Shown here: piece after piece, positions 23,238-61,956 of the stretch
Layout: every line of letters starts with the position of its first letter
Numbering within the stretch: the stretch's first letter is position 1
Origin: a virus
IMG/VR virus record: IMGVR_UViG_3300035661_000025
Span: 32,401-96,400 of that record
Length of the DNA stretch: 64,000 bases
Strand: one strand, 5' to 3'
Translations under genes and position numbers: made by a program
The notes under the pieces: model-generated
Seen by the model: the letters and a program-made list of their open reading frames with translations, nothing else
The model's database searches: none
Told to the model about the DNA's origin: nothing

Positions 23238-24011
23238 ATGAAAATTAAAGCTATTGTAAATGTAAATGATCCACGTCAAGATTCATATATCAGATTTCTT
23301 TCCAAATCATTTCCCGAGATGATGAATGAAGAAAATCCAGAAATGTACTTTGTAGTGGGCGGTGATGGCAGCATGCTTCATGCCCACAAGAATTATAATG
23401 AAGCTATCCCGTTTTTTGGAAAAGGATTAGGCACTCTTAATTTCATCATGAACAATTTTGGCAATGATTTTCGTGTTATTGAAGGATTGCTTAATGATAC
23501 ATTAAAACCAACCATTATAAAAACTCCTAAAATTAAAATAATTACAAAATTTCAATCTGGTATGATTGGAGAATATGAAGCAATTAATGATGTTATTATA
23601 GGCTCAGACATTTCTGATTGGAATTCTTTTGAAATCTCTTCTAAGAATGGATCTTTTGAAGAATTTAAATTTAATGGAACTGGTATTTGTGTAAGCACTC
23701 CTTTGGGTTCCTCGGCGTTTAATATGAACAATGGTGGTAAATTATTGCCTATTGACTCTAATCTTTGGAGCATTACATCTGTGGTTTCTAATCATCGAAT
23801 AAATGAATTGATGAAACCACAGAAAGTCAAAATAAAAATTGAATCATTAAGATCAAATCCTACTTTATATGTAGATGGGGTTCCTATTACCGGTTTAGAA
23901 AAAGGTGACAAGGTTTATCTTAAAAAATGTCCGGAATCTTTTCAAATTGCATTTTTGGACCCAAAAGAATTTTTTGCTAAGCGTATGAAATTGCAGCAGG
24001 AGCGAAGATGA
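23238..24011 (+). CDS. NAD kinase
   Basis: The 257-residue protein has the NAD kinase signatures: VVGGDGSML with GGDG at residues 41-44, a NDVIIG stretch (NE/D motif), GTGICVSTPLGSSAFN for the GxxxSTPxGSxAY motif, and LYVDGVPI near the C-terminus. It phosphorylates NAD to NADP in the cytoplasm. In a phage it may shift NAD pools for nucleotide reduction or counter NAD-consuming defence; both are inference. It overlaps a tiny membrane-protein gene by four bases. Confidence 0.9.
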   Translation: MKIKAIVNVNDPRQDSYIRFLSKSFPEMMNEENPEMYFVVGGDGSMLHAHKNYNEAIPFFGKGLGTLNFIMNNFGNDFRVIEGLLNDTLKPTIIKTPKIKIITKFQSGMIGEYEAINDVIIGSDISDWNSFEISSKNGSFEEFKFNGTGICVSTPLGSSAFNMNNGGKLLPIDSNLWSITSVVSNHRINELMKPQKVKIKIESLRSNPTLYVDGVPITGLEKGDKVYLKKCPESFQIAFLDPKEFFAKRMKLQQERR

Positions 24012-25314: not shown

Positions 25315-26568
25315 GTGAAAACTGCAGGAAATAGATTTTATTTTGAAGAAATTGTAGCAAATATGATAGATCCTACAAATAATCTACAATTTTATGCACA
25401 TTTATTGGCTCAATGTAAAATTTCGATGGATAAATCTTTTAGAGCCCCTGCAGGTGTTTATTTTGATACTTATACATATGGTTTGGTTATAAATCCAATT
25501 CTGTTCAATAAATTTACAAAAAAAGAAAAAGTAGCTATTTTAATTCATGAAGCGTTTCATATAGCATACAATCATGTAACAGTTAGAAAAAAAGATGACC
25601 ATGAAAGATGGAATTATGCTACAGATATAGCTATAAATCAGCTAATCAAAGATCTTCCAAAAACAGCTCTTCATTATAGTCAATTTGATTTACCTGCAGG
25701 ATTTTCGGCAGAGCAATATTATATTGCATTACTTGATAATGAGAAATATAATCAGAAAAAAGAGCAAGATGAAAAGCTAAAAAAACAGATGGAAGAATTG
25801 TTTGAAGAAGCAATTAAGAAAGGATCTTTAGATGTAGATTCTGATGAATGTTTTGGAGATGGTTCTGAAATTGATATACCTTTTGATATACCGATTGATG
25901 CTCATGATAAAGAATCAGAAGGGGATGAAGAATATAGAAAAGAAGTTACCAAAAATATGTTAGAAAAAGCCTCTGAAAAATCTAGAGGAAATGAACCAAG
26001 CGATTACGCTGACATGATTTCTTTATATACAAAAAAAGCTGTGGTTGATTGGCGCAAAGAATTGAGACGGATCGTTGGAAACAAAAAAGCAAATAAACGT
26101 AGAACAATCATGCGTCCAGATCGAAGATTCCCTAATAGAGAAGAAATTAAAGGAATAACTAAAGATCGTATATTTGACTTAATTGTAGTCATGGATGTTT
26201 CTGGCTCTATGCAAGACAAAATGTTGGCTGATGGTTTGAATGAAATTAAAGAAATTTGTAAATTGACTAATTCAAATCTAAAAGTTATTCAAGTCGATAC
26301 AGATATTCATGAAGTAACTGAGGTAACAAAAACAACCACTAAATTTAATAGATCAGCTCATGGCGGAACTAGAATTTACCCAGCAATTGAATATATTAGA
26401 GATAATAAAATAGACCACAACGCTATAGTAATAATTAGTGATATGTGGATAGAATCATCAACAGAGTGGAAAATTCCTCCAAAAGTACCTTGTTTTTTCT
26501 TAAACACTTCAGGTAAAGATTGGGATGGATTTTCTAAATTTAAAAATTTTAAAAATTACCGTATATAA
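25315..26568 (+). CDS. VWA-domain metallopeptidase-like protein (DUF2201 type)
   Basis: The start is GTG with AAAGGATTGAT upstream. Residues 60-150 form the putative metallopeptidase domain: ILIHEAFHIAYNH contains HExxH (His78, Glu79, His82), then WNYATDIAINQLI and SAEQYY. A charged linker follows and a VWA-like domain with DVSGSM (MIDAS) near residue 295. VWA proteins of this kind work with MoxR-type AAA+ ATPases, and two halves of such an ATPase lie at 28337 and 31000. Likely a chaperone-like or proteolytic complex acting on host or phage proteins. Confidence 0.8.
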   Translation: MKTAGNRFYFEEIVANMIDPTNNLQFYAHLLAQCKISMDKSFRAPAGVYFDTYTYGLVINPILFNKFTKKEKVAILIHEAFHIAYNHVTVRKKDDHERWNYATDIAINQLIKDLPKTALHYSQFDLPAGFSAEQYYIALLDNEKYNQKKEQDEKLKKQMEELFEEAIKKGSLDVDSDECFGDGSEIDIPFDIPIDAHDKESEGDEEYRKEVTKNMLEKASEKSRGNEPSDYADMISLYTKKAVVDWRKELRRIVGNKKANKRRTIMRPDRRFPNREEIKGITKDRIFDLIVVMDVSGSMQDKMLADGLNEIKEICKLTNSNLKVIQVDTDIHEVTEVTKTTTKFNRSAHGGTRIYPAIEYIRDNKIDHNAIVIISDMWIESSTEWKIPPKVPCFFLNTSGKDWDGFSKFKNFKNYRI

Positions 26569-27337: not shown

Positions 27338-28189
27338 ATGACCTCAAAAATTCAAGAAAAAGACCCATTCGGTCATAGAATTAAAGAATATGAAGCAAGT
27401 GCAGAGATTTATTTGGATAAATCCAAATACTCCATCATGCGAATTGATGGGCACGGCTTTTCTAAATGGACGAAAGGTTTCTCAAAACCTTTCGATGAAT
27501 TTTTAGCAAATGCATTAGCAGAAACAGCTAGAGCATTGATGGATGAATTTAAAGCAGTTTGCGCTTATTCTCAATCTGACGAAATCACCTTGATTTTTGC
27601 TCCAGATGATAACTTGATTTATTCTGGAAGAATTCAAAAACTAACTTCATTAGCGGCATCATTTGCTTCAATGAAGTTCAATGAATTAATCAGAGAAACT
27701 CTTAGTAAATTATACACTGAGAAAGAAGGTTTGATGCGTGTTAGATCTGCTTCTGTTGAATTATCTAAAGAATATGATAAAATTAACAATAAGGTTTCTT
27801 TTTTGGAGACAAAAATTGGAAGAGCATTTTTTGATGCTCGAGTTTTTCAAGTTCCAGATAAAACTGAGGCATTTAATTCACTTTTATGGAGAACCAGAGA
27901 TTGTGAACGAAACTCTAAAAACGTTTTTGCTCAAAGTATTCTATCCCATAAAGAATGTCAAAACAAAACAAGCAATGAACTAGTTGAGATATGTGAAGAG
28001 CTTGGTCATTTTTGGAGCGATATTCCAGATAAATACAAATATGGAATTCTTTGGAAAAAAGAAACGTATTTGAAACAGCCAGAAAACCCAGAGTTAGAAC
28101 CATGTTTCAGAACAAGATTCATCCAAATCATTAAGAGATTGAATTACTCAGACGAGAATGTTGAAATGGTGCTTTGTAATAAACTTTAA
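27338..28189 (+). CDS. tRNA-His guanylyltransferase-like protein (Thg1 family)
   Basis: The 283-residue protein shows the Thg1 signature: DPFGHRIKEYE, MRIDGHGFSKWTKGFSKPFD with the first metal-binding Asp, and AYSQSDEITLIF with the second acidic pair. Thg1-like proteins add nucleotides in the 3-to-5 direction to tRNA 5-prime ends; many bacterial and phage members repair truncated tRNA. Together with the RNA ligase and the CCA-like enzyme it makes a plausible RNA repair set. It follows its own early promoter and AAGGAAAGAAT. Confidence 0.85.
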   Translation: MTSKIQEKDPFGHRIKEYEASAEIYLDKSKYSIMRIDGHGFSKWTKGFSKPFDEFLANALAETARALMDEFKAVCAYSQSDEITLIFAPDDNLIYSGRIQKLTSLAASFASMKFNELIRETLSKLYTEKEGLMRVRSASVELSKEYDKINNKVSFLETKIGRAFFDARVFQVPDKTEAFNSLLWRTRDCERNSKNVFAQSILSHKECQNKTSNELVEICEELGHFWSDIPDKYKYGILWKKETYLKQPENPELEPCFRTRFIQIIKRLNYSDENVEMVLCNKL

Positions 28190-28242: not shown

Positions 28243-28347
28243 ATGGCGTATTTTTTAACAATTACATTCATTGCTATAATGATGTATGGCGTATTTTCAT
28301 CTTGTAATGTATTTTCAGAATTGAAGGGTAGAATAAATGTTAATTAG
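28243..28347 (+). CDS. Tiny lipoprotein-like or membrane protein, 34 aa
   Basis: MAYFLTITFIAIMMYGVFSSC has a hydrophobic stretch ending in a possible lipobox (VFSSC). AGAAGGAGTCCT is a strong ribosome site. Its end overlaps the ATPase N-half gene by eleven bases, so it may serve as a translational lead-in. Confidence 0.5.
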   Translation: MAYFLTITFIAIMMYGVFSSCNVFSELKGRINVN

Positions 28348-28711
28348 CAATATACGAAGTGTATTAGAGATTTGTTTCAAATCTAATGAAACTTTAATGA
28401 TTGAAGGCCCTCATGGGATTGGAAAATCAGAGGTTGTAGCTAATTTTGCTACAGAAAATAATATGCATAATGAAACATTATTCTTGTCCAACCAAGAAGT
28501 GGGTGATTTGATTGGTATGCCACGTTCAATAGAACGTAATGGTGAGGTTATTCATACATGGACGAAACCTATTTGGTTACAAAAAATGGAAGAAGCGGTT
28601 ATGCCCGCTAAATTCGATGTAGATGATTTAGAATTTTCGGATGAGGACTTCAAGGCTTTCGTTTACTCAAAACTAAAGGAATTGAATGAAGTTAGTAAGG
28701 GACAAATATAA
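28337..28711 (+). CDS. MoxR-type AAA+ ATPase, N-terminal half (split gene)
   Basis: The 124-residue protein holds only the front part of a MoxR-type ATPase: Walker A EGPHGIGKSEVV at residues 23-34, the SNQEVGDLIGMPRSI substrate-contact region, and TWTKPIWLQKM. It stops where the Walker B part should follow. The missing part (Walker B, sensor 1, Arg finger) is encoded at 31000-31953. The last codons are shared with the start of the MazG-like gene in another frame. The two products could assemble into one active ATPase with the VWA protein at 25315. Confidence 0.75.
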   Translation: MLISNIRSVLEICFKSNETLMIEGPHGIGKSEVVANFATENNMHNETLFLSNQEVGDLIGMPRSIERNGEVIHTWTKPIWLQKMEEAVMPAKFDVDDLEFSDEDFKAFVYSKLKELNEVSKGQI

Positions 28712-29213
28712 AGATATAATCCCAGAAGATAAGTTATTTTATATTGAACAAACAGATAAAAAAAGTTTAATAAAATATCTTTCTTTAAAACTAAAAGAGG
28801 AAACTCAAGAGTTTATAGATACTGGATTGACATCTCTAGAAGAACTAGCGGATATTATGGAAGTTTTAGATACCATAATGGAAACATTTGGAATCAATCC
28901 TGATGAGTTGGCGAATGTAGCTAAAAATAAAAATGAAGAAAAAGGGTCTTTTAAAGATTATCTTCTATATGATGATTCTGTTCCAGAAGAAGCAAAAAAT
29001 AATGGCGGAAGCACAGATTATTATAAACTTCCTGCGGGAGCTAAAGATTTGCAAGATCTCATTGAATTTAAAAATATGAACTTTTCTCAAGGTAATATAT
29101 TCAAAGCTATGTATAGATCTGGCGTAGAGCATCATTCGACATATGAAAGAGATTTGAATAAAATTATTTTCTTTGCAAAAAGAGAGTTAAACCGAATTAA
29201 AGGAGACTCATGA
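28686..29213 (+). CDS. MazG-like pyrophosphohydrolase fused to DUF3310-like domain
   Basis: The N-terminal half begins KLVRDKYKDIIPEDK and has LKEETQEFID and LEELADIMEVLDT, the helices of the phosphoribosyl-ATP/MazG-type pyrophosphohydrolases. After a linker, SDYYKLPAGAKDLQDLIEFKNMNFSQGNIFKAMYR resembles (in two pieces) the DUF3310 domain common in phage nucleotide enzymes. It probably hydrolyses a nucleoside triphosphate. Its first 26 bases overlap the end of the ATPase N-half; it overlaps the next gene by four. Confidence 0.7.
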   Translation: MKLVRDKYKDIIPEDKLFYIEQTDKKSLIKYLSLKLKEETQEFIDTGLTSLEELADIMEVLDTIMETFGINPDELANVAKNKNEEKGSFKDYLLYDDSVPEEAKNNGGSTDYYKLPAGAKDLQDLIEFKNMNFSQGNIFKAMYRSGVEHHSTYERDLNKIIFFAKRELNRIKGDS

Positions 29214-29734
29214 AAGTAATAAATTTTTTCGGCGGTCCAGGTACCGGAAAAAGCACTACAGCTGCAGGATTGTTTCATTTAATGAAAACAATGGGTTATA
29301 AAGTAGAATTGGTAACAGAATACGCCAAAGACGTAGTTTATCAAGAATCATTTTTTAAACTTAAAGATCAATTGTATATTTTTACTAAACAACATCATAA
29401 GCTGTGGAAACTTAGAGGAAAAGTAGATTATGTTATAACGGATAGCCCGTTATTGTTATCGTTACATTACTTTCAAGAAAACCCCATTTATAATGAAGAT
29501 AATTTCAAAGCTTTTGTTAAAAGCACATATGATGCTTATGACAATATAAATATTTATCTCATCAGGAATTTAGACCATCACCCATATCAGGGATATGGTC
29601 GAACTCAATCAGAATCTGAGGCGATACAGATAGATCGAGATCTTGTAGAGTTGTTGACACAAAATAAGGTTCAATATTCATCTAAACTAATTACTTCAAG
29701 TATTGTTCAGGATGTTTTTGATATAATCAAATAA
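29210..29734 (+). CDS. P-loop NTPase/kinase (AAA_28-like)
   Basis: The 174-residue protein starts with a Walker A motif FGGPGTGKSTTAAG (residues 6-19), then VELVTEYAKD, a VDYVITDSPLLLS Walker-B-like strand and a YQGYGRTQSE lid. It resembles the AAA_28/NadR-type kinase-like proteins of phages, which may phosphorylate nicotinamide riboside or deoxynucleosides. The substrate cannot be seen. It is coupled to the MazG-like fusion (ATGA overlap), hinting at nucleotide metabolism. Confidence 0.65.
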   Translation: MKVINFFGGPGTGKSTTAAGLFHLMKTMGYKVELVTEYAKDVVYQESFFKLKDQLYIFTKQHHKLWKLRGKVDYVITDSPLLLSLHYFQENPIYNEDNFKAFVKSTYDAYDNINIYLIRNLDHHPYQGYGRTQSESEAIQIDRDLVELLTQNKVQYSSKLITSSIVQDVFDIIK

Positions 29735-29751
29735 CCTAAAAATGTAAGGTT

Positions 29752-29850
29752 ATGTAACTTTTGTTTTTCTGGCAAATGAAACAAAAAGATAGTTACAATG
29801 ATTGAAGCACTTTCTTAAGAAAGTAGGTAAAAGATGATAGGTTTCATCTT
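29752..29850 (+). ncRNA. Candidate structured RNA, three consecutive hairpins
   Basis: The 145-base gap between the kinase and transglycosylase genes is packed with stems. First: GTAACT (29754-29759) with AGTTAC (29791-29796) and, inside, TTTGTTT (29760-29766) with AAACAAA (29779-29785). Second: ACTTTCTTAAGAAAGT (29809-29824), a six-pair stem with a TTAA loop. Third: AAGATGA (29831-29837) with TCATCTT (29844-29850). It has no start codon of note and ends 17 bases before the AAGGAGATC of the next gene. It may be a leader element, riboswitch or small RNA. Confidence 0.45.
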
Positions 29851-29879
29851 CCAACGAAATTGAAAAAAGGAGATCAATA

Positions 29880-30593
29880 ATGGTAATAAATCCAATTGAT
29901 AATTTACGGAAATCTATTAGAATTCAACGAAATTTAATAGTCGGTTTAGTAGCACTTGTTGCAGTGACAGTGTATAGCGCTAAATTGTACATTGATTCGT
30001 ATTATAACGACATTCGTATTGAGAATAAGAATGTAAAAGAACTCAATGATAAAAAAGCTCAAGAAATCGAGCGCCTTAAGAAAGATTTGGAAAGAAATGA
30101 AGCTGAGTTGAAGAAATTTAATGTTCAGAAACAAGTAATTTCAATGTATATTAAGGAGAAAAATCCTAAAGTTGATGATAAAGAAGCTGCTTATTATGCT
30201 ACTGAAATCATCAAATCCTCAAACAAGTATGAAAATGTTAAACATACGGTTTTAACCGGTTTAATAGATTCTGAATCTTCTTTTAAGAAGAATGTCAAAC
30301 ACAATGCTGGATCATCTATACACATTGGTGTAAAAGGATTTACAGGAGTTGCTTCAGGTATATGGTCTAAAGAATTGATTGCCAATCATGTTATCCGAAA
30401 ACCAAGTGATTTGGAAATTCCAAAATACGCTATAGCCGCCGGGGCATATATTTTGAACAAATATTCTAAACATCAGTCCACGTTTGAGGCACTAGTTGAT
30501 TATAAATCAGACTGTCCTTTAGGTAGAAAACAAGCTCTAGATGTTTTAGCTAGAGCTGATAAAATCAAAAGAATGGAAGAAAGATATGCTTAA
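29880..30593 (+). CDS. Membrane-anchored lytic transglycosylase-like protein
   Basis: The 237-residue protein has an N-terminal membrane helix (residues 19-40), a charged coiled coil (residues 45-85), and a periplasmic domain with LTGLIDSESSFKKNVKH (the SLT catalytic Glu) and GVKGFTGVASGIW, matching the start of the soluble lytic transglycosylase fold. The end (AAGAYILNKYSK) is also SLT-like. It would cleave or remodel peptidoglycan from the inner membrane. It overlaps the bactofilin gene by eight bases. Confidence 0.7.
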   Translation: MVINPIDNLRKSIRIQRNLIVGLVALVAVTVYSAKLYIDSYYNDIRIENKNVKELNDKKAQEIERLKKDLERNEAELKKFNVQKQVISMYIKEKNPKVDDKEAAYYATEIIKSSNKYENVKHTVLTGLIDSESSFKKNVKHNAGSSIHIGVKGFTGVASGIWSKELIANHVIRKPSDLEIPKYAIAAGAYILNKYSKHQSTFEALVDYKSDCPLGRKQALDVLARADKIKRMEERYA

Positions 30594-30936
30594 TTTTTTC
30601 AAAAAAGAAAATCCCGATTTTACAATAATCGGGAAAGATTCTACATTTAAAGGCGAGATAACCAGTTCTCATCAAGTTTACATAAAAGGCACTGTAGAAG
30701 CTAATAAAATCATAGCTAAAAGTGTTTTTATTGAAGTTGGAGGTTCTTTAACTGCCGATATAGAATGTTCCGAAGTTTTTATCGCTGGAGTTTATAAAGG
30801 AAACATTAATTGTAGTAATATCACTATTGAACCTACCGGTGACGTAGAATCAGATATTACTTATACATCTATGTTGAATATAAATCCAAACTGCACATAT
30901 AATGGAACCATAAAAAAATCTTTAAATTCCGTTTAA
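30586..30936 (+). CDS. Bactofilin
   Basis: The 116-residue protein has the bactofilin beta-helix pattern: IGKDSTFKGEITSSHQVYIKG then GTVEANKIIAKSVFIEVGG, AGVYKGNINCSN and GDVESDITY, with repeated 'G.i....v.I.G...G.i.a' turns. Bactofilins are polymerising cell-shape proteins; in Campylobacterota (CcmA) they act with peptidoglycan hydrolases in shape control. A phage copy overlapping a transglycosylase gene is unusual and suggests host cell-wall reshaping. Not a near-certain paralogue of a given host gene, but the fold is well supported. Confidence 0.8.
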   Translation: MLNFFKKENPDFTIIGKDSTFKGEITSSHQVYIKGTVEANKIIAKSVFIEVGGSLTADIECSEVFIAGVYKGNINCSNITIEPTGDVESDITYTSMLNINPNCTYNGTIKKSLNSV

Positions 30937-30938
30937 AT

Positions 30939-30968
30939 TATCAGGTTGTTTTAAGCAACAACCTGATA
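30939..30968. terminator. Perfect 12-pair hairpin overlapping a promoter
   Basis: TATCAGGTTGTT (30939-30950) pairs with AACAACCTGATA (30957-30968) around TTAAGC. It directly follows the bactofilin gene and has no T-run after it. Its 3-prime arm contains the start of the next -10 and its loop contains TTTAAG, so it may be an operator as well as a transcription stop. Confidence 0.55.
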
Positions 30969-30972
30969 TAAT
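30949..30972 (+). promoter_or_regulatory. Early promoter embedded in a hairpin
   Basis: TTTTAAGCAA, eleven bases, TG, then TATAAT (30967-30972). The spacing is as at 17661-17683. It drives the separate gene for the C-half of the ATPase. Confidence 0.6.
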
Positions 30973-30999
30973 AATACAAATAAACCTTCAGGAATGATT

Positions 31000-31953
31000 A
31001 TGATAATAACTCGAGAAATCCTTCAAAACTTATACAATCAGTATTATGAAACAGACCACAGTCTGTTGAGCAAACACAACACTCACGTTCATTATTCAAA
31101 AGGTAAACACACCTCATTATTACTAGATGAGTTAAATCGTGCACCATTGGATATAAGACAAGCTGCACTTCAATTAATCCTAAGCAAACAAATACATCAA
31201 CATACATTACCTTATTTTAAAGGTATTCCGGCTATGGTTACAGCTTGTATTAATCCAGAAGATGGATATCAAGTTGAAGCTATGGACCCAGCATTGCTAG
31301 ACAGATTTTTAACATTAAATGTTACTGTTGATGCAAACGCTTGGCTAAAATGGGCGGAAAATCATGATGTCTTAAAAGTTATTAGATCTTTCATTCGTGA
31401 TAATCCAGACAAATTACATTGGAGTTCAGTAGAAGTTCAAGATTCAAAATATCCTACTCCACGAGCATGGACTAAATTATCGGACGTTCTTAAAAACATC
31501 CCAAATGCCAAGAAAAATCCTTTGACTTTAGATTTAATAAAAGGAAAAATTGGAGAGAGTATTGGGACTCGTTTTTATACTTATTTTTGTAAATTTGATG
31601 AACAAATAACATCAGATGATATTCAAGCATATGTAGAAAATCATGAATCTGAAGATCCAGAAATCATTGGAAATGATTTGAGAAAATCATTATTAAAATC
31701 TATGGATGTATTGAACAAATCTGAATTGACTGAGTTTTTCATTAAGACACAAATAGTAAAAAACGCCACAGTCAGTTCAGCCCTTACCGCACTCAGTATG
31801 TTATGGTGTGTAGAATTGGAAACTCGTGGTTCTATTTTGAGCAATTTAAAAGAAAATCATCTAGATGTATTTAAAATTTTCTTGAATTTGGATACAGATC
31901 GTAAAATAACTAAATCCATCACTTCTTTAATATTAAAAGGACGTGAATCATAA
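31000..31953 (+). CDS. MoxR-type AAA+ ATPase, C-terminal half (split gene)
   Basis: ATG at 31000 is chosen because AGGA lies eight bases upstream; an ATG two codons earlier is too close. After about 35 unmatched residues, SLLLDELNRAPLDIRQAAL (Walker B, residues 39-57), TACINPEDGYQ (sensor 1) and ALLDRFLTL (Arg finger near 102) follow, then a helical C-terminal region. There is no Walker A, so the protein alone cannot bind ATP normally. The Walker A half is at 28337-28711. The missing piece between the halves is 2.3 kb of other genes. Confidence 0.75.
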   Translation: MIITREILQNLYNQYYETDHSLLSKHNTHVHYSKGKHTSLLLDELNRAPLDIRQAALQLILSKQIHQHTLPYFKGIPAMVTACINPEDGYQVEAMDPALLDRFLTLNVTVDANAWLKWAENHDVLKVIRSFIRDNPDKLHWSSVEVQDSKYPTPRAWTKLSDVLKNIPNAKKNPLTLDLIKGKIGESIGTRFYTYFCKFDEQITSDDIQAYVENHESEDPEIIGNDLRKSLLKSMDVLNKSELTEFFIKTQIVKNATVSSALTALSMLWCVELETRGSILSNLKENHLDVFKIFLNLDTDRKITKSITSLILKGRES

Positions 31954-58422: not shown

Positions 58423-61400
58423 ATGGCTACAGCTAAAATGATAACTACCATAACTGAAAAGATCTCTACTTCTGGTCCGGGAACTCCTCAGTTAGATGCA
58501 CTTAATGGTATATTAAGAACAGCAAAAACTAGTTGTATAAGTCAAACTGGATTTTTAACTGAGGCACTTAGTCAGTATAATCAAATAAGAAGCTTATTAA
58601 ATTCAGCATCTTGTACCGTACATTGGAGTACTTTTGATTTTGCAGGAAGAATAGCTATGGGTGACTTCATGGATGATTCCATGACAGAATTACTTGGAAC
58701 TAATCCTTCAGCAGCGTTAACAAAAGCAAACAATTTAATAAATTCTGCATGTTCTATGATAAATGGTCTTATGAATTTTGTAAACATGATGAAAAATTTC
58801 ATGCTTCAGATATATTCACTTTTAGACTTTCTTAAAGGAATAGGAGATTTTGATATTGATTGTAATTTTGGCGATCTAGTTACATTATTATCTCAAACAC
58901 CTAATTTTTCACCTTCAACATCGTTTCCGTCTTATATGGAAGGTCATTTAAGAAAAACCGAAAGAATAATCGGAAAAATGTACGGAAATAAATCTAATGG
59001 CACTAGAAATATAAAAGCTTTAAATGAAGTTCAATTGACTAGATATCCGACAGAAAATATATCTTTAGCAGATATTTTGAAGTATAGTAAAGTGAATATT
59101 GATAGTGCGGAATATGACCCAGATTTTGGTTATATGTATGACGCTGGTGTTAGATATGACCAAGAATTGGTAGATATGCAATCTAGACTAGTAAATGCTT
59201 TAGTTGCTGAAGCTGGAGATATTGGAACTTCAGAATTACAAACTCAAGGTTTTTGTTCTATTTCAGGAAATGATACTAAAGAAGCGTGTTTAGCTGCTGG
59301 TGGTATTTGGACATTAAATGATGATATATCAAAAACAGTAAAAAAAGTTCCTAGAACATGGTATGTAGAATCTGATATAGATTTTATGAATTTAGATATT
59401 CTAGCTGGTGATAATGTAGAAGATAAAAGAAATGGAACATTATATATAAAAACACATGAAATAATTCCAGAATTGTTTTCTGATGTAATGATTCAAGGTT
59501 GGGCAAATCATGTAGCCCCATTCAATTTCATTTTAGATAATAAAAGCAAAAAGGGTGATAATTCATTCATAACTCTTCAAGATATTCCAAATCTAGAAAA
59601 AATATTGATTAGAGCTAAAACTGACTATGATAATTCAATTTATAAAAAGACTATAACAATAGCTAAATATACTGATTCATTATCTAGATTAGCTGAGACG
59701 GGAGAAACCCCATCAGTAATACAAGATTATTTAACTTTTATGAATTCATATGACTTAAGAACTGTAAATTTATACACATTATATGAGATTTTGGATAATA
59801 ATCCAAACAAAATTGGTAGATTAAAATGGATTATTGAAGCTGGTAAAGACGCTATTGCTAATAAAACAAATAGCTTCACTAAAAATGATGGTATAAATGG
59901 GAATATAACTCTTACTTTTCCATTATCATCATATGATTATGAAAATATAAAGAACAATGACATAAACAATAGCAATGAATTTATAAGCACAGATATTTCA
60001 AAAATTAATTCATTTAATTATCATATAAAACAATTTTATGATGAATTCAAAAACTTTGATGAATTTATTACTAACTTAACCGAAAAGATTACGGAAATGG
60101 ATTCAAAATATAATGATTTCATTATAAAAAATTCATTATCAGATGCTTTATATTACGGAACCAAAAAATCTTATGATTACCCAGGTAAAAATATAATTAG
60201 AATAGGGGACGGCAAAGTTTATTTAGCTTTTTCTAATCCACACATTCAAATAACAAACGAAGTTTCCGAAAATCCTTCTTTGAATTTATTTCATGGCGAT
60301 GTTTGGCAAGATAGTACTACACATAAAGTTTACATGTATTTGAGATTACTGGGTAGCACTTCATCTACATTCACTTATGAATGGAAAGAGATTGGAAGTA
60401 CTGTTCAAATTTTTAGGGATTTAAATGAAGATCCCATAAATGTAACTTTAACATTAGATGCTTCGGTTTTTTCTAATATTGATAACAAAACAAATACATA
60501 CTCATCTAATGATGGAATAGACCCAGCTGCTACTTGGAATGAGTATCAATCATGGACTAATATTGGAGATATTTGGTTAGATTCTAGTGATTCTGCTTTA
60601 GGTATTAGACAAAAAGTATATTCATATAATGGAACTAATTTCGTTTGGACTCCTTTGTTATCAAATAACCCTCCTATTATTGCTCCAGTAGTAATAAATA
60701 CAGCTGAAGATACTGCAATTACTGGAAATATGTTGAATGGTGTTTTTGATATTGATGGTGATAGTTTCTATCTAGATAGCATCAAAATAAATGGAACAGA
60801 AATTTCTACGAACCCTAATTTAGCTAGTGTTGATGTTCATATATCTGGATTTGGTTTGTTAAAATTGATTGGAAATAAAGGTGATTATTATTTTTATCCA
60901 GATCAAAATGTAAATGGTTCATTTAGTTTCAGTTATAAAGTAATTGATTCTAAAGGAGCATCTAGCGTTTCGTTATGGACTATATATATCACTCCCGTCA
61001 ATGATAGACCTGTTATATCAGGGCCAATCAATGTGGTTTATAGCGCAGATGTGTTGACTACTCAATCTATAAATTTATTGCAAAATGCTTCAGATCCAGA
61101 AAATGATGAATTGTTTGTATCAGATATAGAATGTTTGACTGATAATGATAAAGCTGGTCAGTCTGGTATTGAAAAATATTTTACAACATCTAATATATTG
61201 AATGTGCTGCCATCATATTATAAAGATATATTAAAAAGATCTGAAACAGAAATTATAAATTATACTTATTCAATAACAGATGGTTATTCACCTAAAGCGT
61301 TCACTGGATTGACTATTTCAATAACTGGTATCAATCACGCTCCAGTTTTAAATGAGGTTATTAAAAATTATAATTTCTTTGCAGATGTTAATTCCACTGA

Positions 61401-61956
61401 TATTTTATTATCAGATTTAGCTACAGATTTTGATGGAGATATTTTAAATATTTCAGATTACGTGAAATTTACAGATCCGAAAAATTCATTATCTGCAAAC
61501 GTTACAAAGTTTGTGATAAATCCATCCAAATATTATAATGTTTTGAAAAGAGGTGAAGTTCAAAATATATCAGCTAATTATAAAGCTAATGATTTGAATG
61601 GTGGGTTTTCAGATTTAGGAACATTGAATTTTAAAATAACTGGAGTTAATCACGCCCCAGAAATAACACAAGATTATGGGGTTAGTTTTATAAAAACTGA
61701 TGCATCTTCCAATATAGATATGCTAAAATATGCTATTGATTTTGACGATGATGTATTACTTGTAGAACCAAATAGTATCTCAATAACTGGAGACGATGCT
61801 GGGATAGCTATTAATAATAACATAATTACAGTAACACCATCTTCGTATTCGACAATAACAAATCCTGAGATCATAACAATATTTTTCAAAGTTAAAGATG
61901 AAATGAATGTAGAATCTAATCTAGGAAAAATTATTATAACTATAAATCCTCAATAA
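58423..61956 (+). CDS. Large baseplate-associated adhesin with VCBS/cadherin-like repeats
   Basis: The 1177-residue protein has a helical N-terminal part (residues 1-180, several Met/Leu-rich helices), a middle region, and from about residue 760 three or four Ig/cadherin-like units: PPIIAPVVINTAEDTAITGN, NDRPVISGP, INHAPVLNEV and VNHAPEITQDY, each followed by DFDGD-type calcium sites. It sits between the spike and PAAR genes, so it may be a tail-tip or baseplate adhesin. I do not recognise a T4 homologue. AAAGGAACACA precedes the ATG. Confidence 0.6.
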   Translation: MATAKMITTITEKISTSGPGTPQLDALNGILRTAKTSCISQTGFLTEALSQYNQIRSLLNSASCTVHWSTFDFAGRIAMGDFMDDSMTELLGTNPSAALTKANNLINSACSMINGLMNFVNMMKNFMLQIYSLLDFLKGIGDFDIDCNFGDLVTLLSQTPNFSPSTSFPSYMEGHLRKTERIIGKMYGNKSNGTRNIKALNEVQLTRYPTENISLADILKYSKVNIDSAEYDPDFGYMYDAGVRYDQELVDMQSRLVNALVAEAGDIGTSELQTQGFCSISGNDTKEACLAAGGIWTLNDDISKTVKKVPRTWYVESDIDFMNLDILAGDNVEDKRNGTLYIKTHEIIPELFSDVMIQGWANHVAPFNFILDNKSKKGDNSFITLQDIPNLEKILIRAKTDYDNSIYKKTITIAKYTDSLSRLAETGETPSVIQDYLTFMNSYDLRTVNLYTLYEILDNNPNKIGRLKWIIEAGKDAIANKTNSFTKNDGINGNITLTFPLSSYDYENIKNNDINNSNEFISTDISKINSFNYHIKQFYDEFKNFDEFITNLTEKITEMDSKYNDFIIKNSLSDALYYGTKKSYDYPGKNIIRIGDGKVYLAFSNPHIQITNEVSENPSLNLFHGDVWQDSTTHKVYMYLRLLGSTSSTFTYEWKEIGSTVQIFRDLNEDPINVTLTLDASVFSNIDNKTNTYSSNDGIDPAATWNEYQSWTNIGDIWLDSSDSALGIRQKVYSYNGTNFVWTPLLSNNPPIIAPVVINTAEDTAITGNMLNGVFDIDGDSFYLDSIKINGTEISTNPNLASVDVHISGFGLLKLIGNKGDYYFYPDQNVNGSFSFSYKVIDSKGASSVSLWTIYITPVNDRPVISGPINVVYSADVLTTQSINLLQNASDPENDELFVSDIECLTDNDKAGQSGIEKYFTTSNILNVLPSYYKDILKRSETEIINYTYSITDGYSPKAFTGLTISITGINHAPVLNEVIKNYNFFADVNSTDILLSDLATDFDGDILNISDYVKFTDPKNSLSANVTKFVINPSKYYNVLKRGEVQNISANYKANDLNGGFSDLGTLNFKITGVNHAPEITQDYGVSFIKTDASSNIDMLKYAIDFDDDVLLVEPNSISITGDDAGIAINNNIITVTPSSYSTITNPEIITIFFKVKDEMNVESNLGKIIITINPQ

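What the first reader, a model, noticed from the sequence alone, without database searches (positions are those of the whole stretch)
28337..31953. AAA+ MoxR ATPase broken into two genes with a 2.3-kb cassette between
Seen: the 124-residue product at 28337 has Walker A and ends before Walker B; the product at 31000 has Walker B, sensor 1 and the Arg finger but no Walker A. Between them lie a MazG-DUF3310 gene, a P-loop kinase, a multi-hairpin RNA, a transglycosylase and a bactofilin. Each half has its own promoter and ribosome site. Known: MoxR ATPases pair with VWA proteins, and such a protein is at 25315. Inferred: both halves may still assemble in trans, so the gene was split by an insertion without loss of function.
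Basis: partly seen in the sequence, partly recalled or inferred. Interest (0 to 1): 0.76.

Follow-up and report, generated by a model that had tools for sequence, protein, structure and literature searches.

The report
Phage motor ATPase in two pieces
In a group of uncultured phages the gene for a ring-forming ATPase is cut into two separate genes kept apart by unrelated genes, and both pieces are preserved by evolution, which suggests that the enzyme now assembles from two chains.

Summary
Window 28337-28711 encodes the Walker A part and 31000-31953 the Walker B/sensor/Arg-finger part of one MoxR-type AAA+ ATPase; they match adjoining, non-overlapping stretches of one phage ATPase profile. 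Intact orthologues exist in Vibrio and Alteromonas phages and in uncultured viruses.

The split is not unique and not decay. Three further uncultured viruses (53-58% identical) carry the same two halves at the same break, 2.3-3.8 kb apart, around the same genes. Among 157 distinct ORFs surveyed, 150 are uninterrupted, 3 cut by contig ends, 4 split. Both halves are under purifying selection (dN/dS about 0.05-0.11) and keep all 28 near-invariant residues. The break falls in a loop between two helices of an insert. The C half has its own conserved TATAAT box and ribosome site; the N half only a ribosome site.

Best reading: a 'gene in pieces' whose products assemble in trans. Assembly is inferred. 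The intervening genes look like native MoxR neighbours, not a mobile cassette, so local rearrangement is about as likely as insertion. New variant of a known kind.

The parts
28337..28711 (+). N half of the MoxR-type AAA+ ATPase: beta1, Walker A (GPHGIGKS), beta2, helix-2 insert, helix 2 and the first part of the alpha2-beta3 insert; 124 aa
   Evidence: aligned to intact Va1, AD45 and L018 proteins
31000..31953 (+). C half of the same ATPase: second part of the insert, Walker B, sensor 1, Arg finger, sensor 2 and lid; 317 aa from ATG 31000 (mechanical ORF from 30994)
28323..28328 (+). ribosome-binding site of the N half (GAAGGG)
   Evidence: read by eye
30939..30968 (+). 12-bp hairpin between bactofilin and the C half (terminator- or processing-like); a hairpin is predicted in the same interval in 4 of 4 split viruses
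   Evidence: fold -16.0 kcal/mol; others -11.1, -13.8, -23.5
30967..30972 (+). TATAAT box 33 nt upstream of the C-half start; 30-33 nt upstream in 4 of 4 split viruses
30990..30993 (+). ribosome-binding site of the C half (AGGA), 6 nt before ATG 31000
28686..29213 (+). MazG-like + DUF3310-like fusion; overlaps the end of the N half by 26 bases; the MazG part is absent from L008 and L010
   Evidence: weak family matches
29210..29734 (+). P-loop kinase (AAA_28 / phrog_2107), intervening gene in 4 of 4 split viruses
29735..29879 (+). untranslated leader of the transglycosylase gene, 134-145 nt in 4 of 4 split viruses, with weakly supported hairpins
29880..30593 (+). transglycosylase (SLT) with N-terminal hydrophobic segment, intervening gene in 4 of 4; otherwise seen only beside an intact MoxR in L020
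30586..30936 (+). bactofilin, intervening gene in 4 of 4
25315..26568 (+). likely partner: DUF2201 metallopeptidase + VWA domain protein
   Evidence: pairing of this domain architecture with MoxR in jumbo phages described in PMC7824862

Best explanation
A MoxR-type AAA+ ATPase, partner of the DUF2201-VWA protein at 25315, is encoded in two pieces in a small clade of uncultured phages. The N chain supplies the ATP-binding P-loop; the C chain supplies Walker B, sensors, Arg finger and lid; the two associate non-covalently into the usual subunit and ring. The break lies in a loop inside an insert between helix 2 and strand 3, where cutting costs little. Shown: two separate, complementary, conserved ORFs under purifying selection, with intact orthologues elsewhere; a conserved TATAAT and ribosome site for the C half. 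Inferred: assembly in trans, ATPase activity, ring formation, action with the VWA partner as a virion-assembly or processing chaperone. The split probably happened once, in the clade's ancestor, by insertion or local rearrangement (undecided).
For: Complementary halves on one profile, 11-96 and 97-310 of 356. Intact orthologues: 369 aa in Vibrio phages (N 54%, C 33-34% identical), 435 aa in Alteromonas phage AD45, 429 aa in L018. The same split in three further viruses, two of them each seen in two contigs (L007/L011 identical, L008/L009 99.9%), so not an assembly error. dN/dS (NG86, pairs without the window): N 0.10-0.11, C 0.05-0.10, against 0.14 for VWA and 0.10 for PhoH in the L008-L010 pair. 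28 of 28 columns conserved at 95% or more in 25 intact rows are kept in 4 of 4 split viruses. N and C trees both make the split viruses one group (SH-aLRT 98 and 100) with the window outermost. AlphaFold2 of intact L018: mean pLDDT 92.5; the break maps to residues 111-116, between helices 101-110 and 119-130. Best solved folds: NorQ and NorQ-NorD VWA complexes, CbbQ. No other MoxR in the 96.4-kb record.
Against: No direct evidence that the chains meet: no two-chain model, no coevolution test (only 4 viruses), no experiment. The records are partial, so an intact MoxR elsewhere in these genomes cannot be excluded. dN/dS against the window is saturated or undefined in many pairs; the usable values come from three close relatives, several with dS above 1. 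Trees do not place the insert-bearing intact proteins (L018, AD45) next to the split clade, so the history of the insert is unclear.
Confidence: 0.74

Rival explanations
1. Origin by local rearrangement rather than cassette insertion: the intervening genes are native downstream neighbours of MoxR, and a duplication with reciprocal loss (or relocation of the 3' piece past them) left the N half in place and the C half beyond the bactofilin gene. It concerns the origin and is compatible with assembly in trans.
For: SLT homologue about 140 nt downstream of an intact MoxR in L020, and this SLT family was otherwise found only in split viruses; kinase homologue (42-44%) 3.9 kb downstream of intact MoxR in L018. 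No mobility gene, intron or intein between the halves. Intervening genes are conserved and constrained.
Against: No remnant of a second copy of either half was found (the best stray hit beside an N half, E 0.03 among many uncorrected comparisons with composition correction off, is in another frame). The halves meet almost exactly, with no overlap or gap, which a clean insertion explains more simply. Only 2 intact relatives show the linkage.
Confidence: 0.42
2. Origin by insertion of a gene block (perhaps carried by a now lost homing endonuclease) into the insert loop of MoxR, as for nrdA of phage Aeh1. Also compatible with assembly in trans.
For: Clean break with no lost residues against L018 and AD45. 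The spot after the N half keeps changing content: MazG in the window, a 329-aa ORF plus MazG in L007, nothing extra in L008 and L010. Precedent: split but working phage genes (PMC2988022).
Against: No endonuclease in any of the four intervals as far as scanned; block genes are neighbours of intact MoxR in two relatives.
Confidence: 0.45
3. The halves have parted ways: one or both have a new, independent function and no longer form one ATPase.
For: Separate control of the C half; N tails are variable in length and sequence.
Against: Catalytic residues of a composite active site are kept on both chains in 4 of 4 viruses. A Walker B/Arg-finger chain without a P-loop has no evident use alone (inference).
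Confidence: 0.15
4. The transcripts or proteins are joined again (trans-splicing intron or split intein).
For: Clean break.
Against: No Rfam match in the window at gathering threshold, and only a spurious miRNA model at E<=5 in 28300-31100. N halves end within a few residues of the break, leaving no room for an intein; the C half has its own start codon and ribosome site in 4 of 4.
Confidence: 0.02
5. Assembly artefact or pseudogene remnants.
For: Metagenome contigs only.
Against: Four distinct viruses, two of them in two contigs each, same break, low dN/dS.
Confidence: 0.01

Closest known systems
MoxR-VWA(metallopeptidase) chaperone pair of jumbo phages (PMC7824862)
   Same: Same ATPase type with a VWA partner bearing an N-terminal metallopeptidase domain; proposed there for virion assembly and processing (passages read).
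   Different: There described as a MoxR-VWA pair, with no mention of a split MoxR in the passages read; here the ATPase is two genes, and a Thg1-like gene lies between VWA and the N half (in the window a phosphoesterase too).
Genes-in-pieces of T4-like phages: Aeh1 nrdA, phage 25 gene 43A/43B, T4 genes 39/60 (PMC2988022, passages read)
   Same: One enzyme gene broken into two ORFs in phages; nrdA shown active and gp43A/B shown to co-purify, as reported there.
   Different: There a homing endonuclease or an untranslated spacer splits the gene; here four or more ordinary genes with no endonuclease found, and the broken protein is an AAA+ ATPase cut between Walker A and Walker B.
Split DNA polymerase III alpha and split RNA polymerase subunits of jumbo phages (PMC7824862)
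   Same: Catalytic module encoded by separate genes expected to reconstitute the enzyme (passages read).
   Different: Different enzymes.
NorQ-NorD and CbbQ-type MoxR ATPases (PDB 9qh4, 9qh8, 6l1q)
   Same: Nearest solved folds of the intact relative L018, NorQ solved with a VWA partner.
   Different: Single chain; about 14% identity.

Membership tests
MoxR-type AAA+ ATPase (PHROG 1297) | Sequence match to the phage MoxR-like ATPase profile | tested here: met
   N half 2.5e-12 (11-96), C half 8.1e-38 (97-310); intact L018 2.9e-58
MoxR-type AAA+ ATPase (PHROG 1297) | Walker A, Walker B, sensor 1, Arg finger, sensor 2 all present (motif names recalled) | tested here: met
   Present, but on two chains:
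MoxR-type AAA+ ATPase (PHROG 1297) | Helix-2 insert and pre-sensor-1 beta-hairpins (feature recalled) | tested here: inconclusive
   In the intact L018 model strands 62-65/70-73 lie between beta2 and helix 77-86, and short strands precede 195-200; not tested on the split protein as a whole
MoxR-type AAA+ ATPase (PHROG 1297) | VWA partner gene nearby | tested here: met
   DUF2201-VWA 1.1-1.8 kb upstream of the N half in 4 of 4 split viruses (coordinates)
MoxR-type AAA+ ATPase (PHROG 1297) | Hexameric ring and ATP hydrolysis | not testable with these tools
   needs protein
Phage gene in pieces | Uninterrupted orthologue in relatives | tested here: met
   150 of 157 distinct ORFs
Phage gene in pieces | Both pieces conserved and under purifying selection | tested here: met
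Phage gene in pieces | Homing endonuclease between the pieces (usual cause) | tested here: not met
   No endonuclease among the intervening proteins scanned; most L008 and L010 genes judged by homology
Phage gene in pieces | Pieces co-assemble and work | not testable with these tools
   only one chain at a time could be modelled
Split intein / trans-splicing intron | Intein fragments at the break or intron RNA | tested here: not met

The most novel reading that the evidence does not exclude
An obligate two-chain AAA+ motor in which P-loop and Walker B/Arg finger sit on separate, separately controlled proteins: the N chain is made with the upstream genes, the C chain from its own conserved TATAAT/ribosome-site unit behind a hairpin, so the timing or amount of the C chain would set when the MoxR-VWA chaperone ring forms during infection. 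The insert halves (helix 101-110 from N; helix 119-130 from C, numbered on L018) would be the stitching surface.
Probability: 0.35. Interest if true: 0.75.

Novelty: new variant of a known kind. Interest (0 to 1): 0.58.

Why it matters
AAA+ rings use an active site shared between neighbouring subunits; here the site within one subunit would itself be built from two gene products. It shows how deep a AAA+ domain can be cut and still be kept by selection, gives a natural split point for engineered split AAA+ proteins, and offers a phage gene in pieces without the usual homing endonuclease, with a candidate alternative origin. It also warns that annotation pipelines would call each half a fragment or a hypothetical protein.

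Tried and rejected
Rfam on the whole window and, permissively, on the interval: nothing useful. Single-protein scans of viral contigs with each half found only the same virus; alignments were needed. The genome-contig scan gave only distant relatives, 79 of 80 uninterrupted and one cut by a contig end. Sigma-70 promoter scan: no excess over chance; a wider TATAAT-type motif in the window: 16 found, 9 expected, weak. Remnants of a duplicated half: none convincing. The first conservation count for the C part was wrong because N tails had been aligned onto Walker B columns; it was redone with each half read only on its own side of the break, and only that is used. Leader RNA 29735-29879: three of four sequences are near-identical, so covariation is uninformative. 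NCBIfam: no useful hit.

Selections: trees and conservation used 25 intact rows of about 150 plus the 4 split viruses; the two structure alignments used 60 and 36 rows; the synteny table prints only loci below L100 with at least one non-MoxR hit; dN/dS left out the MazG/DUF3310 gene because its make-up differs between viruses.
Full report
What is there. Window 28337-28711 (+) encodes 124 aa with the P-loop GPHGIGKS; 31000-31953 (+) encodes 317 aa with LLLDELNR, the sensor-1 Asn, LLDRF and TPRAW (motif names are recalled). Both match one phage ATPase family, PHROG 1297, in adjoining parts: 11-96 and 97-310 of 356. Between them lie, on the same strand, a MazG/DUF3310-like fusion, a P-loop kinase, a 145-nt untranslated leader, an SLT transglycosylase and a bactofilin. 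The record is a 96.4-kb partial virus contig, and no other MoxR is found in it.

Intact relatives. tblastn finds uninterrupted orthologues in Vibrio phages Va1, phiKT1024 and others (369 aa; N half 54% over residues 1-92, C half 33-34% over 35-319) and in Alteromonas phage AD45-P1 (435 aa, overlapping the VWA gene). Vibrio proteins lack a stretch of about 60 residues between helix 2 and Walker B; AD45 and the uncultured virus L018 have it, and the window's N tail and C head align with its two parts with hardly a residue missing. So the gene was cut inside this insert.

The split is shared. An alignment-guided scan of viral contigs gave three further split viruses: L007 (= L011, identical over 15 kb), L008 (= L009, 99.86%) and L010. 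L003/L005 are the window's own virus again (100% over 21 kb) and are not counted as independent. N halves are 55-58% and C halves 53-54% identical to the window's. Distances from N stop to C start: 2,288, 3,797, 2,265 and 2,389 nt for window, L007, L008 and L010. All four have VWA and Thg1 upstream and PhoH downstream. In a survey of 183 loci (157 distinct ORFs), only these four lack the upstream part without being cut by a contig end; 3 are cut, 150 are uninterrupted.

Both halves are kept. NG86 dN/dS for pairs without the window: N half 0.10-0.11; C half 0.05 and 0.095 (the third pair is saturated); VWA 0.06-0.14; several of these have dS above 1, and comparisons with the window are largely saturated. 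All 28 columns conserved at 95% or more in 25 intact rows are kept in the four split viruses; at an 88% threshold 39 of 41 are kept, at 80% 50-51 of 56, within the range of intact rows (44-56). Separate trees of N and C parts group the four split viruses (SH-aLRT 98 and 100), the window outermost in both. This suggests one origin and joint inheritance, though four tips are a weak test of congruence. The trees do not put L018 or AD45 next to the split clade, so where the insert came from is open.

Where the cut is. AlphaFold2 of intact L018 (60-row alignment) gives mean pLDDT 92.5 and pTM 0.81. Helix 101-110 ends the N part, helix 119-130 begins the C part, and the break maps to the loop 111-116. 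The C half alone is predicted at mean pLDDT 86.3, pTM 0.71, with residues 19-33 below 50. A two-chain model was not available. Nearest solved folds to L018: NorQ and NorQ-NorD VWA complexes and CbbQ; a profile search also finds midasin and NorQ.

Expression. In 4 of 4 viruses the C half has AGGA/AAGGA about 6 nt before its ATG, a TATAAT 30-33 nt upstream and a predicted hairpin before that. TATAAT occurs once per 660 bases on the window's + strand, so the chance at four given positions is about 0.6% per virus, though three of the viruses are close relatives. The N half has ribosome sites in 4 of 4, but a TATAAT within 150 nt in only 2 of 4, at different distances; it probably rides on an upstream transcript. 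Consensus promoter matches as such are at chance level.

How it arose. No endonuclease, transposase, intron or intein was found between the halves. DUF3310-like, kinase, SLT and bactofilin genes occur in all four intervals; MazG and, in L007, a further 329-aa ORF come and go next to the N half. The SLT family was otherwise met only about 140 nt behind an intact MoxR in L020, and a kinase homologue lies 3.9 kb behind the intact MoxR of L018. The block may thus be native neighbours rather than cargo, and a local duplication with reciprocal loss would leave the same picture. No remnants of second copies were found. I hold insertion and rearrangement about equally likely.

How it probably works. 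A MoxR ATPase with a metallopeptidase-VWA partner in jumbo phages was proposed to assist virion assembly and processing (PMC7824862, passages read). I infer that N and C chains fold together, with the P-loop strand slotting between strands of the C chain (AAA+ topology, recalled), and form the usual ring. Two phage enzymes in pieces are reported to work or to co-assemble (Aeh1 NrdA; phage 25 gp43A/B; PMC2988022, passages read).

Novelty. Five searches of the open literature showed no paper on a split phage MoxR; listings and, for four papers, passages were read. The kind (a phage gene in pieces) is known; the protein, the place of the cut and the lack of an endonuclease are new to me.

Noticed in passing
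window 29735-29879; L007 8336-8471, L008 4863-4996, L010 4713-4848: Untranslated leader of 134-145 nt before the transglycosylase gene in all four split viruses, with hairpins (z -1.4 to -2.8) and no Rfam match in the window; possibly a regulatory leader.
   Followed up: partly
L020 9746-11674 (also L183): The same rare SLT transglycosylase sits about 140 nt behind an intact MoxR; in viral contigs this SLT family was seen only beside MoxR (whole or split), which hints at a functional link.
   Followed up: partly
window 27338-28189: Thg1-like tRNA-His guanylyltransferase gene between VWA and the N half in all four split viruses (PHROG 4717); unusual phage cargo.
   Followed up: no
window 23238-24011: NAD-kinase-like protein (name by recall), 76-79% identical in the split clade, among the most conserved neighbours.
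   Followed up: no
window 28686-29213 versus L007 7166-7804: MazG-like and DUF3310-like parts are fused in the window, separate in L007, and MazG is missing in L008 and L010; L007 adds a 329-aa ORF (phrog_2475) at the same spot: a turnover hot spot directly after the N half.
   Followed up: partly
L007 10994-12433: PhoH protein of L007 is only 37-40% identical to those of the other three split viruses (67-92% among these), as if replaced by a foreign copy at the same place.
   Followed up: no
window 25315-26568 and public records: The DUF2201-VWA family (phrog_1314) is labelled 'HNH endonuclease' in PHROGs and in many phage records, although Pfam shows a metallopeptidase plus VWA domain: a likely spreading mis-annotation.
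   Followed up: no
window 58423-61953: 1177-aa protein with cadherin-like/Ig-like repeats, likely a tail or adhesion protein.
   Followed up: no
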